Shown one piece after another: positions 32,202 through 36,782 of a stretch of DNA of 64,000 nt. Position 1 is the first letter of the stretch, and each line of letters begins with the position of its first letter. The stretch spans positions 682,001 through 746,000 of the forward strand of contig JAOZHT010000001.1 in the NCBI GenBank assembly GCA_026014735.1, in the 5' to 3' direction. Position numbers and translations under genes: made by a program. The notes under the pieces were generated by a model. It was not told the DNA's origin and did no database searches. It saw only the letters and a list, made by a program, of their open reading frames with translations. This DNA is from Candidatus Bathyarchaeota archaeon (GTDB taxonomy: Archaea > Thermoproteota > Bathyarchaeia > Bathyarchaeales > Bathycorpusculaceae).

Positions 32202-32399
32202 TGAAGCCTCCTCTTCCCCAATTATTTTCTTTTGTTTATTTGTTTTCGCTGTTTTCCATGGATGATTTCTCAAGGCGCAGCTGTTTTTTCCTAAAACCCC
32301 ATTCAATTAGGCAGCGGATACTTCTCAGTCAGCTAAGGGAAAAACCGTTTTTGAAACTTATCTTTTTATAGCCGATACGTGGCTATTGCCGCGATAACC

Positions 32400-34406
32400 T
32401 TGACTTACCGCTCCAAAGACAACTGCGGCGCAAGCCCCCAATATAACTCAAGTGGCAGCGTGGATGCTGCGCCCCAAATTACAGTCTCATCTTTGGATGC
32501 GCCTAAACCTAAGGGCTCCCGCAAAAAAGCCGCTGCTGCAAAAACCGCTGAGAAACCGGTGCTGTGCGAGTTTGATTCTGGCGCTATAAATAGAGGGGGG
32601 GTAGAGAGCCGGCAAGCAACAGAGCAGTCAAACAGTAAGCACAAGTATTTTCTATCCCAAACTGACCCCTTCAACATAAAAGGGCAGGTGCAAACAAGCA
32701 ACTACGCGTCTTACCAGCGATTTAGGCTTAACCTTGAGGCGCTGCAAATAAAGCAAACCCGCAAAATCGACCGCCTAATCGCGTTAGATGCTATCCGAAC
32801 AAAACTAACCCCCTACAATTTCCAGATGAAAACTGCCCTGCAGGTAAGTAGCGAAATGAACGCCAACGCCATACTCGCCGACGAAGTGGGGCTTGGCAAA
32901 ACCATCGAGGCAGGACTCATCATCAAAGAGCTGCTGCTGCGCGAAGAAATCAACTCCATACTGATTGTGTCACCTAAAAGCCTGCTTTACCAGTGGAAAT
33001 CGGAGATGGCAGAAAAATTCGGCGAAGCCTTCGCCATAGCCAACAACCCCCAAGAACGCGTGGATTTCGAGTGCGACGACAGAATTATCTGTTCGCATAA
33101 TCTTTTGGCAAGAAAATTCGAAAAGATCGCGGGTCGAACCTGGGATTTGGTGGTGGTGGATGAGGCGCATGCGTTTAGGAACACGCATAGCAAGGGCAGG
33201 GCTTGCCTGGGTAATTTGCGGAAAAATCATCTGTTGCTGCTCACCGCCACGCCGCTGTGTAACCGCCTCAGTGACCTCTACAGCATCGTGGATTTGATTC
33301 AACCGGGCATCTTGGGCAGTGAACGCGCCTTTATCTCACGCTTTGCTGAGGATTCCAGGTGCCGTGTTGTGCGGCAAGATGAAGCAGCTTATCTGCGTCA
33401 GATTCTGCGGGATGTAATGTGCCGTACACGCCGGGAACAAACAGGTATCCCCTTCACCAAACGCATCGTAGAATCCCGAACGCTTGAAGCGAACCTGGAA
33501 GAGCGAGAATTCATCGATGAAGCCACCCAGTACCTGCGTGACGTAAGCCAAAACCGCTTCAAAACCATCGAGGCCTTAATCGCCGAAAATCCCTCCCGCA
33601 AATTCACCGCCTCGCAGAGCAACGCAATCCTTGTTTTCCAGGCAATAACCCTCCAGCAGTCCTTCTCCAGCTCACCGGATGCCTCTATAGAATCGCTGAC
33701 TCGCCGACAGCAACGTTTTCCAATGGAGAAAGACGCCACAGACAAACTCCTTGAGATGGCAAAAAAAGTGCGCAGCGCAAAAATGGAACTGCTGAGAAGC
33801 GTTCTTCGGGACGCCCCAAAGGAGCAGGCGCTGATTTTCTGCCTCCGCAAAGTCACTGCCCGCAAAATAAAGGAGCTACTCGACGCCGAGTTTGGGCGCG
33901 CGGCGGTTTATTTAGGCGACATGAATCAGGCCGAGAGGGAAACGGTGATTGAGCAGTTTAAAAGCGGCGAGGTCCGCTATCTTGTCGCCACCGACGCAGC
34001 CGCGGAGGGCTTGAACTTGCAGAATTGCGCTGTCATGTTCAATTACGATTTGCATTGGAACCCCATGAAAATCGAGCAGCGCATCGGCCGCATCCACCGC
34101 TTCAAGCAGGACCGCGACGTCACCGTCTTTAACCTCTGCGTCAAAGACACCATCGACGACTATGTCCTGCATATCCTCTACCAGAAAATCGATTTGTTCA
34201 CCATGACTGTGGGCAAAATGGAAACGGTGCTGGCGGAGCTCAAGGAAGGTTCACAGGACATCCAGAAAACCATCGGGGAAATTCTGCTGCGAAGCAGCAG
34301 CCGCTTAGATATCAAAAAGGAACTTGAGAAACTTGCCGCTGACCTGAATGTGTCGCGGGAAACTGAGGAGTTAGCTGAGAAATTCACAGAGGGGGTTATT
34401 GATTGA
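32400..34406 (+). CDS. SNF2-family helicase/ATPase, first gene of a three-gene module
   Basis: About 668 residues. Helicase motifs are present: ADEVGLGKTIEAG (Walker A) near residue 160, IVSPKSLLYQW (Ia), VVDEAHAF (II) near 252, LLLTATP (III), then LGDMNQAERE, VATDAAAEGLNLQ (V) and QRIGRIHRF (VI) near 560. These match the RapA/HepA-like SNF2 branch that moves along duplex DNA. TTG 32400 fits a TATA box CTTTTTATAG about 30 bases upstream; a GTG at 32379 is in frame but too near that box. A second TATA-like block at 32584 leaves a GTG at 32688 as a shorter alternative. It overlaps the next gene by four bases. Confidence 0.88.
   Translation: MTYRSKDNCGASPQYNSSGSVDAAPQITVSSLDAPKPKGSRKKAAAAKTAEKPVLCEFDSGAINRGGVESRQATEQSNSKHKYFLSQTDPFNIKGQVQTSNYASYQRFRLNLEALQIKQTRKIDRLIALDAIRTKLTPYNFQMKTALQVSSEMNANAILADEVGLGKTIEAGLIIKELLLREEINSILIVSPKSLLYQWKSEMAEKFGEAFAIANNPQERVDFECDDRIICSHNLLARKFEKIAGRTWDLVVVDEAHAFRNTHSKGRACLGNLRKNHLLLLTATPLCNRLSDLYSIVDLIQPGILGSERAFISRFAEDSRCRVVRQDEAAYLRQILRDVMCRTRREQTGIPFTKRIVESRTLEANLEEREFIDEATQYLRDVSQNRFKTIEALIAENPSRKFTASQSNAILVFQAITLQQSFSSSPDASIESLTRRQQRFPMEKDATDKLLEMAKKVRSAKMELLRSVLRDAPKEQALIFCLRKVTARKIKELLDAEFGRAAVYLGDMNQAERETVIEQFKSGEVRYLVATDAAAEGLNLQNCAVMFNYDLHWNPMKIEQRIGRIHRFKQDRDVTVFNLCVKDTIDDYVLHILYQKIDLFTMTVGKMETVLAELKEGSQDIQKTIGEILLRSSSRLDIKKELEKLAADLNVSRETEELAEKFTEGVID
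32584..32622 (+). promoter_or_regulatory. TATA-bearing block, copy A of a duplicated promoter-like sequence
   Basis: A 22-base stretch from CTATAAATAG through seven G's to TAGA is identical to 41507-41528 on the other strand, and similarity continues into GGCAnGCAACAG. It lies inside the N-terminal part of the helicase frame. If it is a promoter, translation could begin at GTG 32688. Confidence 0.45.
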
Positions 34407-35785
34407 GCGCGAAGGCCGCTGACCCGCAGATACGTCGCCTCATCGGAGCCTACGTGGAAGCTAAAAAAGGTACAGTAACCGAGCAGTCAAACCAGACCCT
34501 TAAAGCATATTACCCCAACAGCGACACCTCCGAAGAATACACCTACAACCCCGCCCTAGCAAAAGAGAAAAAAATCCCCCTAATCGCACCCGGCAGCCCA
34601 ACTTTTCAGCGGATAATGCATGAGTGCCTCACCCAAGGCATACTCTGCCAGGTCGCGGTTAAGCCTAAGCCTGATTTTGAGGCGTTTCTTAGGCGACGCT
34701 TCAGAGAGGGCGCTTTTGCCTGCGTTGACTGCGAAAAGGTGCATGTCGGCGGCGGAGTGGTGAACGTCTGCGTTAAGCCTTCACCCTGTTATCACCGAGT
34801 AAACAACGCTAAAATCGCCTCTATAGATGCGGTTAAAAAGGAACCTGCACGGTACTACCAGTTCTATTTCTCAATTATCCTCCAAAACAAGCTGCGACCA
34901 AAAAGCGAAGAAATCCTGACTTTGCTGCTTGACGAAAAATACAACGTTATAGCAGTCGGGGATTTCGGCGACAAGAATCCACTGGATGATGAGGCTTTAG
35001 CGGCTGAAGATGTCAAGGTCAAGCTCAGAGCGGATGTCTTTGAAAAACTCAAGGCGACGGCTGATGAACACATCGCGGGTCTTTTGCGCAGCAAACTGGT
35101 GCTCTATGATTTTCAACTTGTCAGGGATAAGAAGGCTAAGCTGCGGAGCTACGAAAAACGTCTCAAGCGGGAACGCCGCGAACAAGTGATTTCCAAGAAG
35201 CTGGCGCTGGATTTTGATCCTTTGAAGTGGCAGGCTAACTGTGAAGCGCTGCTGCAGCGGGAGGAAGAATCCTACCTCACCCATGTCACCGTCAAGTTCC
35301 TAAACTTGCTTGTAATCAACACCTCCAAAGTCAAGTTCGAAGTCACCCTCGACAACCACGCAACCATACAGTCCACGATAACCCCCGGAGTTAACCATGA
35401 CATAGAAGTCGCTTGCCCGGTTTGCAAAAAACCCTTTGCGGAAGGCTTTGCCACCGAAGATGGTCTTTATGTATGCGGAGGATGCATCCGCCAATCTGTC
35501 GATACAGCCAAAATCTACTCCAAAAAGGCTTCGTTGGCGATGGATGAGACCATCCGTGAGTTCTTTGAATCGGATTCGGGTTTCGTTTGCTCGGTCTGCG
35601 GAAAAAAACACAGCCGCCTCCTCGAATTCAAATGCAGCCACGATAACTCCAGCGTATGCATCAACCACTATGACGTATGCGATGTCTGCGGAGCGGTCTT
35701 CTCTAAACTTAACCTCACCCCAACCGACGAGTTCCGCCGCCTGCTCTGTCCAAAACACGCCAAAAACAAGAAGGAGACCGCTTAA
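34403..35785 (+). CDS. Unrecognised multi-zinc-finger protein, second gene of the helicase module
   Basis: 460 residues from TTG 34403, overlapping the helicase stop (TTGA). I do not recognise a family. There is a Cys pair block CVDCEKVHVGG...CVKPSPCYH near residue 110, a long charged helical middle (RSYEKRLKRERREQVISKK), and then three zinc-ribbon-like blocks: CPVCKKPF...CGGC, CSVCGKKH...CSHD and CDVCG...CPKH. The layout suggests a DNA- or protein-binding adaptor that works with the helicase. Two bases after its stop the nuclease-like gene starts. Confidence 0.75.
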   Translation: MSAKAADPQIRRLIGAYVEAKKGTVTEQSNQTLKAYYPNSDTSEEYTYNPALAKEKKIPLIAPGSPTFQRIMHECLTQGILCQVAVKPKPDFEAFLRRRFREGAFACVDCEKVHVGGGVVNVCVKPSPCYHRVNNAKIASIDAVKKEPARYYQFYFSIILQNKLRPKSEEILTLLLDEKYNVIAVGDFGDKNPLDDEALAAEDVKVKLRADVFEKLKATADEHIAGLLRSKLVLYDFQLVRDKKAKLRSYEKRLKRERREQVISKKLALDFDPLKWQANCEALLQREEESYLTHVTVKFLNLLVINTSKVKFEVTLDNHATIQSTITPGVNHDIEVACPVCKKPFAEGFATEDGLYVCGGCIRQSVDTAKIYSKKASLAMDETIREFFESDSGFVCSVCGKKHSRLLEFKCSHDNSSVCINHYDVCDVCGAVFSKLNLTPTDEFRRLLCPKHAKNKKETA

Positions 35786-35786
35786 C

Positions 35787-36710
35787 TTGACCTATGTAAA
35801 GCTTAATGGGTTAATCGAAGAGATTTTGACGCGTTACCCCGACATTGACATCGGAGAATTTTTGCAGGATAACCTGCAGCTTCCGCCCTTTAAAGCTGAA
35901 GCGTTAGCTGCCCGAATAGAAAAACAAATCTGCCCCCAAACCAGCCAAACCCCAAAGCTGACCCGAAACCTCCTGCAGAAACCCATCGACACACAGGCGC
36001 CTGCCGCGGGCTGCGACTACGCGGTTGATTCCCTCTCACCGGGGGAATTTGAGCGCTTCATCCGCTGGCTCTTAGAGACGCTGGGTTACTGCATCGAAGC
36101 TGAATCGTTTCCTGCTACATCAGGCATGGATTTAGTTGCTGACAAAGACGGCACACGCGTGGCGGTTATGGCGCGCAGATACCCCCGAAACCTCGAGGTA
36201 ACCGATGCAATCATCTTAAATGCCAACGACGAAAAACGCATCTACCAATGCAGCAAAACCCTAGTCATAGCCACCGCATCCTTCACCTCCCAAGCCGCGC
36301 TTGACGCCCAAAACGGCGACATAGAGCTCTGGGACCTAGCCGCCCTCGCCGAAAAGATAGCACAGGCAGCCCAAAACGCCCAAGATAACCCGCAGTTCAG
36401 CTTTCCGCCCTTCAACGGTTCACTTCTGCAAAGCCTCCGCAAACTGGGGGAAACCAAAACCTTCCGCATCGAGTCACGTGGCCCAGAAAAATATGATTTG
36501 TACTTGCCGGGCGTGAGGTATCCGCTTTTAACCTTCCAAGTTTCTGAGGGCGCTGTGTCGAGCTGTGTTTTTCGAATTCGCTACAATGAGCCAGTGGTGG
36601 AATCCGCCGGTGAAGTGTTGATTGGCGGCGTCGGCGACGGCAGGGTGGAGCCCGATGAGGCTGATGCTTACGCTTTAATCGTTGAGTACCTTGAACACTT
36701 CATCAACTAA
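35787..36710 (+). CDS. Mrr-like restriction-endonuclease-fold protein with altered catalytic site
   Basis: About 307 residues from TTG 35787; an AAGGAGA lies upstream. The longer open frame to 35436 is a shadow of the previous gene. The middle ~110 residues follow the Mrr pattern: LSPGEFERFIRWLLETLGY, GMDLVADKDG, VAVMARRY, a CSKTLVIATASFTSQAAL segment, and IELWDLAALAE. In active Mrr enzymes the last strand reads QxK; here it is Met-Ala-Arg, so the catalytic Lys and Gln are missing. It may bind DNA without cutting. Third gene of the module with the helicase and zinc protein. Confidence 0.75.
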   Translation: MTYVKLNGLIEEILTRYPDIDIGEFLQDNLQLPPFKAEALAARIEKQICPQTSQTPKLTRNLLQKPIDTQAPAAGCDYAVDSLSPGEFERFIRWLLETLGYCIEAESFPATSGMDLVADKDGTRVAVMARRYPRNLEVTDAIILNANDEKRIYQCSKTLVIATASFTSQAALDAQNGDIELWDLAALAEKIAQAAQNAQDNPQFSFPPFNGSLLQSLRKLGETKTFRIESRGPEKYDLYLPGVRYPLLTFQVSEGAVSSCVFRIRYNEPVVESAGEVLIGGVGDGRVEPDEADAYALIVEYLEHFIN

Positions 36711-36782
36711 GCGTTTTTTTGACCCAAAAAACAAAACTTCTAAATGGTTGAGAAATAGAAGTAACAGCAGAAAGGGAACTTT

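What the first reader, a model, noticed from the sequence alone, without database searches (positions are those of the whole stretch)
32400..36710. Helicase / zinc-finger / Mrr-like three-gene module inserted in the exosome-RNase P superoperon
In many archaea L15e is followed by COG1325, Rpp30 and Pop5. Here L15e-L13e and COG1325-rnp3-rnp2 are separated by a tightly coupled SNF2 helicase, a 460-residue protein with four zinc-binding blocks that I cannot place, and a restriction-endonuclease-fold protein. SNF2 helicases with nucleases are typical of anti-phage systems, yet this triad lacks known DISARM or type I/III partners. It could be an undescribed defence or DNA-repair system. It has its own TATA box.
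Basis: partly seen in the sequence, partly recalled or inferred. Interest (0 to 1): 0.8.

Follow-up and report, generated by a model that had tools for sequence, protein, structure and literature searches.

The report
Split SNF2 motor module in archaea
Three neighbouring archaeal genes encode a DNA-motor protein cut into two pieces plus a nuclease-like partner whose cutting site is worn out; the set is found throughout one archaeal genus, has relatives on salt-lake plasmids beside known virus-defence genes, and looks like an undescribed branch of a known class of defence motors.

Summary
The triad is real: SNF2 ATPase (32400-34406), zinc protein ZnP (34403-35785) and Mrr-fold protein (35787-36710), translationally coupled, with their own promoter. 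All three occur in the same 27 genomes (26 of 32 Ca. Bathycorpusculum plus one neighbouring genus), in identical order in every locus examined. Only in the window's genome does the set sit between L13e and COG1325; 28 of 29 other L15e loci have that cluster uninterrupted. Inheritance looks mainly vertical, with losses; one genome keeps a deletion scar. ZnP can now be placed: its model's only significant PDB matches are RapA, so genes 1 and 2 look like one RapA/HmaA-class SNF2 ATPase split in two. The Mrr partner has lost the PD-(D/E)xK triad in 26/26 species yet is under purifying selection. Distant relatives in the same order occur in two other archaea of the phylum and on three haloarchaeal plasmids, some with an intact nuclease; related SNF2+ZnP pairs sit beside HmaB-, HmaC-, TmtA-, PbeA- or GajB-like genes. 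Most likely: a stand-alone split relative of helicase-nuclease defence effectors, now kept as a near-core, nuclease-dead remodeller. New variant of a known kind; antiviral function in this genus is unproven.

The parts
32363..32402 (+). Promoter and start region of the module: TATA box TTTTTATA (32363-32370) and CGATAACCTTG with the probable start codon TTG at 32400
   Evidence: Conserved at constant spacing in 25 of 25 homologous loci although the flanking genes differ
32400..34406 (+). SNF2-family ATPase (668 aa from TTG 32400; the longest ORF starts at GTG 32379); motor half of a RapA/HmaA-class protein
   Evidence: Pfam SNF2-rel_dom and Helicase_C; motifs I, II and VI invariant; nearest solved relatives SSO1653 and RapA
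34403..35785 (+). ZnP: 460-aa zinc protein, reading as the detached RapA-like C-terminal half with a coiled coil and four zinc blocks
   Evidence: 22-member alignment; AlphaFold model whose only significant PDB matches are RapA; related to haloarchaeal ZnP, hhalign E 1.9e-14
35787..36710 (+). Mrr-fold protein (307 aa), PD-(D/E)xK fold with degenerate active site (GMD...VMAR) and a conserved C-terminal domain
   Evidence: Pfam Mrr_cat 1.7e-13; catalytic residues never complete in 26 homologues; dN/dS 0.15-0.22; fold matches AF1548 and AspBHI
36728..36747 (+). Upstream element of COG1325, outside the module: right border of the insertion
   Evidence: Same sequence, or nearly so, upstream of COG1325 in relatives without the triad (L161, L168, L164)

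Best explanation
The module is a stand-alone SNF2 nucleoprotein translocase of the RapA/BrxHII/HmaA class whose polypeptide is divided between two genes, plus a separate Mrr-fold partner. SNF2 supplies ATP-driven movement on double-stranded DNA. ZnP supplies the C-terminal half that such motors normally carry in the same chain; its zinc ribbons and coiled coil most likely contact DNA or a target complex such as RNA polymerase. The Mrr protein is the detached nuclease module. The lineage most likely arose as an effector against mobile DNA: the motor recognises or remodels complexes on invading DNA and a nuclease cuts. In Bathycorpusculum the nuclease has become a non-cutting but still selected DNA- or nucleotide-binding subunit, so here the complex would displace or stall proteins on foreign (or stressed) DNA rather than cleave it. 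Shown: gene architecture, own promoter, co-inheritance, fold similarity of ZnP to RapA, loss of catalytic residues, purifying selection, wider relatives and their contexts. Inferred: assembly of the three proteins into one complex, the substrate, and the antiviral role.
For: ZnP model: only RapA entries match below E 0.001 in the PDB (1.7e-5 to 8.8e-5, prob 1.00). Its helix/strand order follows the published post-helicase region of RapA/BrxHII (inactive REase-like domain, then a five-stranded domain with two long inserted coiled-coil helices; PMC12839542). SNF2 is nearest to SSO1653 and RapA among solved structures and to DrmD/BrxH/HmaA models. The three genes occur in the same 27 genomes, in identical order in 25 of 25 fetched loci. 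Same order SNF2-ZnP-Mrr in two further archaea of the phylum (L204, L216) and on plasmids of Halocatena, Haloferax and Halorhabdus, with intact D...QxK in L204, L216 and Halocatena. SNF2+ZnP-type pairs adjacent to HmaB-like (L220), HmaC/DUF499 (L224), TmtA (L223, E 2.1e-237), PbeA-like (L214) and GajB-like (L222) genes. Purifying selection on all three genes. Losses, and a deletion scar joining SNF2 to the Mrr tail in G031, show the module is dispensable.
Against: In Bathycorpusculum the set is in 26 of 32 genomes, single-copy and mostly vertically inherited, unlike a typical patchy defence system; neighbours are mainly housekeeping with scattered defence hits. The nuclease is dead. Whole-chain TM-score to RapA is low (0.25, rmsd 11.7), and a profile comparison of distant ZnPs with the E. 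coli RapA C-terminal sequence alone found nothing. The split-SNF2 group is only weakly supported as one clade (63/85). No complex was modelled and no virus data exist.
Confidence: 0.55

Rival explanations
1. Housekeeping remodeller: an archaeal RapA analogue. The split motor binds RNA polymerase or stalled nucleoprotein complexes and recycles them, the zinc ribbons and the dead Mrr domain serving as docking modules; defence-associated relatives are cousins with a different job.
For: Near-universal, single-copy, mainly vertical inheritance in the genus; fold match to RapA; nuclease catalysis lost but all genes under purifying selection; mainly housekeeping neighbours.
Against: Absent from the other genera of the family except one genome and lost several times within the genus, odd for a transcription housekeeping factor; ZnP and Mrr diverge fast (49-57% and 41-49% identity to the window copy against 79-93% for L15e); relatives are plasmid-borne, beside defence genes, and some keep an active-looking nuclease.
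Confidence: 0.27
2. DNA repair or replication-restart factor: the SNF2 motor with zinc and nuclease-fold partners handles damaged or stalled DNA structures, like Rad54- or SSO1653-type translocases.
For: Best solved-structure hit by sequence is the archaeal SNF2/Rad54 helicase SSO1653; the Mrr-fold model resembles AF1548 and, more weakly, a Pyrococcus repair endonuclease; UvrC lies among the neighbours in two sampled proteins.
Against: SNF2 matches RapA/DrmD/HmaA models over much of its length; ZnP matches RapA, not repair proteins; the nuclease is inactive; no consistent repair neighbourhood.
Confidence: 0.1
3. A mobile element: the three genes move themselves as a unit, which would explain the unusual site in the ribosomal/RNase P cluster.
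For: Different neighbours in different clades while promoter and gene order stay fixed; a single unusual insertion in the window species.
Against: No transposase or integrase domain in the set and no obvious terminal repeat or target duplication in the border sequences compared by eye; single copy per genome; trees mainly agree with markers; gene order outside operons is fluid in this genus anyway (RIO beside L15e only in the window).
Confidence: 0.04

Closest known systems
RapA (HepA), E. coli RNA polymerase recycling ATPase
   Same: SNF2 motor; the ZnP model matches RapA and nothing else significantly in the PDB; order motor, then alpha/beta and coiled-coil domains.
   Different: One chain in RapA, two genes here; no Pfam RapA_C match in the genome; NCBIfam RapA score 176.8 against a cut-off of 576; added zinc blocks and an Mrr partner.
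HmaA / BREX-related (BR) type-1 helicase-nuclease of DUF499 systems (PMC12839542, PMC8565338)
   Same: SNF2 motor, inactive-REase and alpha/beta coiled-coil region, then a PD-(D/E)xK module, in the same linear order; some split relatives stand beside HmaB- or HmaC-like genes.
   Different: Three genes instead of one protein; the window genome has no DUF499 and no DUF1156; nuclease dead in this genus.
DISARM DrmD
   Same: Highest-scoring curated SNF2 family (246 bits).
   Different: Far below its cut-off of 950 bits; none of the genes beside the triad in the window is a DISARM component.
Zorya ZorD (SNF2 helicase with Mrr-like nuclease)
   Same: SNF2 motor combined with an Mrr-type domain; PADLOC ZorD models hit both the motor and the Mrr protein.
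   Different: Separate genes, no zorAB genes beside it, an additional ZnP, inactive nuclease.
Haloarchaeal plasmid SNF2-ZnP-Mrr triads (Halocatena salina, Haloferax lucentense, Halorhabdus tiamatea), recognised here
   Same: Same three families, order and strand.
   Different: ZnP carries long CxxC/CxxH arrays (676-1245 aa); nuclease intact only in Halocatena; plasmid-borne.

Membership tests
DISARM | DrmD-level SNF2 helicase | tested here: not met
   NF038318 246.4 bits against a cut-off of 950; NF038317 235.3 against 610
DISARM | drmA, drmB, drmC and a methylase beside it | tested here: not met
   Immediate neighbours in the window are ribosomal and RNase P genes; no DISARM genes among the listed hits of 63 flank proteins in the genus (one search lists the first 25 families)
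Hma / BREX-related DUF499 system | DUF499 ATPase | tested here: not met
   Absent from the window genome; found in 2 of 32 genus genomes, one of which lacks the triad
Hma / BREX-related DUF499 system | DUF1156 methyltransferase | tested here: not met
   Absent from the window genome; found in 3 of 32 genus genomes
Hma / BREX-related DUF499 system | Motor, inactive REase, alpha/beta coiled-coil domain and nuclease in one chain | tested here: not met
   Comparable parts present but in three genes
RapA family | Single chain with RapA_C and RapA-level score | tested here: not met
   No PF12137 match in the genome; 176.8 against 576 bits
RapA family | RapA-like fold of the C-terminal half | tested here: inconclusive
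   RapA entries are the only Foldseek matches below E 0.001, prob 1.00, but whole-chain TM-score is 0.25 and a profile-sequence test failed
RapA family | Binds and recycles RNA polymerase | not testable with these tools
   Needs pull-down and transcription assays
Mrr-type restriction endonuclease | Catalytic D...(Q/E)xK | tested here: not met
   No Bathycorpusculum sequence of 26 has all three residues
Zorya | zorA/zorB genes adjacent | tested here: not met
   Window neighbours are L13e and COG1325
SNF2 ATPase | Motifs I, II and VI intact | tested here: met
   GLGKT 171-175, DEAH 261-264 and QRIGR 567-571 (675-aa numbering) invariant in 20 sequences
SNF2-ZnP-Mrr module defined here | ZnP homologous to the haloarchaeal and other archaeal ZnP | tested here: met
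   hhalign prob 98.3, E 1.9e-14, 328 columns
Any defence system | Protects against viruses or plasmids | not testable with these tools
   No experimental data; only neighbourhood of distant relatives

The most novel reading that the evidence does not exclude
SNF2-ZnP-Mrr is a distinct, undescribed archaeal immune system centred on a two-gene RapA-class motor, with bacterial two-gene cousins on cyanobacterial and alphaproteobacterial plasmids. In several lineages, Bathycorpusculum and two haloarchaeal plasmids among them, it has discarded nuclease catalysis while keeping the module, so it would defend by moving or blocking complexes on DNA rather than by cutting.
Probability: 0.35. Interest if true: 0.75.

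Novelty: new variant of a known kind. Interest (0 to 1): 0.55.

Why it matters
It gives a probable identity to an unplaceable 460-aa zinc protein (the detached half of a RapA-class SNF2 motor), defines a three-gene module that the defence library checked here does not model, and points to culturable haloarchaeal homologues in which its role can be tested. If nuclease-dead forms still block viruses or plasmids, a SNF2 motor can act against foreign DNA without cutting it; if they recycle RNA polymerase instead, these archaea have a RapA counterpart. Either way, a 'SNF2-related protein + hypothetical' gene pair that is common on archaeal plasmids and present on some bacterial ones becomes interpretable.

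Tried and rejected
Without result: ZnP against Pfam, NCBIfam and PADLOC (only sub-threshold zinc-finger hits); PDB by sequence (weak RING/TRIM hits, best E 0.006); IMG/VR viral contigs (none); phage and plasmid collections with the window ZnP (none). The window ZnP is too diverged to reach the haloarchaeal relatives directly; they were reached through the SNF2 gene of other archaea in the phylum and the gene beside it. hhalign of the distant ZnPs with the E. coli RapA C-terminal sequence alone failed, so the RapA link rests on the model, Foldseek and domain order. hhalign of ZnP with single sequences from L204 or L203 was weak; a five-sequence profile was needed. Considered and rejected: an active Mrr restriction enzyme; DISARM, Hma or Zorya membership; a self-moving element; acquisition of the window copy from another clade (its branch differs from the marker tree, but agreement is not rejected: AU p 0.064). 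A TATA-like motif at 32584 was dropped because the conserved promoter is at 32363.

Full report
Observation. The window holds three consecutive + strand genes between L13e and COG1325: a SNF2 ATPase, a 460-aa protein (ZnP below) and an Mrr-fold protein. They are tightly coupled (a 4-nt overlap, then a 1-nt gap). The window lies in a 1.14-Mb contig of a 2.9-Mb genome. Record titles of the matching loci include several Ca. Bathycorpusculum genomes, which identifies the genus.

Distribution. ZnP (profile, E <= 0.01), SNF2 (E <= 1e-60) and Mrr (E <= 0.001) match the same 27 genomes of the order: 26 of 32 Bathycorpusculum genomes and one genome of a neighbouring genus with 8% contamination. The Mrr search adds three weak hits only. 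A phylum sample of 398 genomes found ZnP only in this genus. Gene order and strand are identical in 25 of 25 fetched loci. In none of those 25 does tblastn find L15e, L13e, COG1325, Rpp30 or Pop5 in the flanks fetched, though some contigs are short. Conversely, 28 of 29 other L15e loci show L15e(-L13e)-COG1325-Rpp30 without the triad; the remaining one ends at a contig edge.

Promoter and borders. The neighbours differ between clades, yet each of the 25 loci has cTTTTTATA followed at nearly constant distance by a CGATnCtcTTG-like start region, as does the window. The promoter therefore stays with the genes, and the SNF2 start is probably TTG 32400. On the right border, the element AAAACAAAACTTCTAAATGG upstream of COG1325 is shared with close relatives that lack the insert. 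The module thus seems to sit between transcription units rather than inside one. Gene order outside operons is fluid here: RIO, beside L15e in the window, is not found beside L15e in any of the other 29 loci. Variable neighbours are therefore not by themselves evidence of mobility.

Inheritance. Triad and marker trees share the main clades. The window's triad is placed differently, but agreement with the marker tree is not rejected (AU p 0.064). Six of 32 genomes lack it; three of these are 95-97% complete. In G031 a scar remains: the promoter and the SNF2 N-terminus, with frameshifts, run directly into the last 60-odd residues of Mrr. The module is near-core but dispensable. In close pairs dN/dS is 0.03-0.10 for SNF2, 0.10-0.15 for ZnP and 0.15-0.22 for Mrr (counting method, some dS values near saturation).

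What ZnP is. It matches no curated family above cut-off. An AlphaFold model (pLDDT 75.7) has an N-terminal alpha/beta segment, a long beta hairpin, long coiled-coil helices, a beta segment and zinc ribbons. In the PDB, four RapA entries match below E 0.001 (best 1.7e-5, prob 1.00), a fifth RapA entry follows, and unrelated proteins start at E 0.2. The whole-chain TM-score is low (0.25), so this is similarity of parts, not of overall pose. The published description of RapA and BrxHII (motor, inactive REase-like domain, then a five-stranded domain with two long coiled-coil helices inserted; PMC12839542) has the same order, and the SNF2 gene ends where that half would begin. The simplest reading is one motor split over two genes.

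What the Mrr protein is. Pfam assigns Mrr_cat to all 22 members scanned and the inactive-REase family NA-iREase1 to 18 of them. Aligned with intact homologues, D is kept in 21 of 26, Q/E in 6 and K in 1, never all together. The model's best fold matches are AF1548 and modification-dependent restriction enzymes. It is a selected but almost certainly non-cutting subunit in this genus.

Wider relatives. Outside the genus the two closest SNF2 proteins are also short. In L204, and in L216 found from it (the two genomes of 250 in that order with a full-length match), SNF2 is followed by a 585-601-aa Cys-rich protein and an Mrr gene with intact D...QxK. In L203 it is followed by a ZnP-like gene only. 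tblastn with the L204 protein found plasmids of Halocatena, Haloferax and Halorhabdus, each with SNF2-ZnP-Mrr in the same order; in Haloferax the 1245-aa ZnP frame is intact but unannotated. Homology of the Bathycorpusculum ZnP to these is supported by hhalign (prob 98.3, E 1.9e-14, 328 columns). The Halocatena SNF2 finds 17 haloarchaeal plasmids above 50% identity (itself included) and more distant cyanobacterial and alphaproteobacterial ones. In all ten further regions of these kinds that I opened (seven haloarchaeal, two cyanobacterial, one alphaproteobacterial) a hypothetical gene of 346-398 aa follows SNF2 directly. Profile links from ZnP to these shorter proteins are present but weaker. 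Neighbours include an HmaB-like DUF1156 methylase (L220), HmaC-like DUF499 ATPase (L224), TmtA (L223), PbeA-like helicase (L214) and GajB-like helicase (L222).

Comparison with known systems. Curated cut-offs for DrmD, DpdE and RapA are not reached. The window genome has neither DUF499 nor DUF1156, so the module does not work as an Hma/BR system, even in trans. It resembles an HmaA-type helicase-nuclease dismantled into three genes and standing alone. I found no description of the triad in the papers searched, but the library is incomplete.

Judgement. Architecture, co-inheritance, promoter, catalytic decay and relatives are shown. That the proteins form one complex, what they act on, and that they protect against viruses are inferred. 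Defence ancestry is favoured by the relatives. A RapA-like housekeeping role in Bathycorpusculum remains a serious rival, because the genus keeps the module almost everywhere, inherits it mainly vertically and has dropped the nuclease activity.

Noticed in passing
L209:1149-1850 (G031, contig C101): Deletion scar: module promoter and SNF2 N-terminal codons, with frameshifts, run into the Mrr C-terminus; the ATPase motifs and ZnP are gone.
   Followed up: yes
L214:7878-11615 (Haloferax lucentense plasmid pSVX82-3): A 1245-aa Cys-rich ZnP frame is unannotated; short antisense ORFs are annotated in its place.
   Followed up: partly
L227, L228, L229 (Nostoc, Oscillatoria, Rhodovastum plasmids): Two-gene SNF2 + hypothetical (346-385 aa) pairs in bacteria; the second protein is related by profile to the archaeal ZnP.
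   Followed up: partly
L204:6974-8269: A DUF2130 gene lies directly upstream of the SNF2-ZnP-Mrr set in this archaeon; not seen in L216.
   Followed up: no
L208 (G109): A genome of another genus carries the triad; its 8% contamination leaves transfer versus misbinning open.
   Followed up: no
window 32584-32593: Second TATA-like motif (CTATAAATAG) inside the poorly conserved 5' part of the SNF2 frame.
   Followed up: no
L029-L053, flanks of the triad: Scattered defence-type hits (mads_3 models in 3 proteins, AbiE, HamB-like helicase) among mostly housekeeping neighbours.
   Followed up: partly
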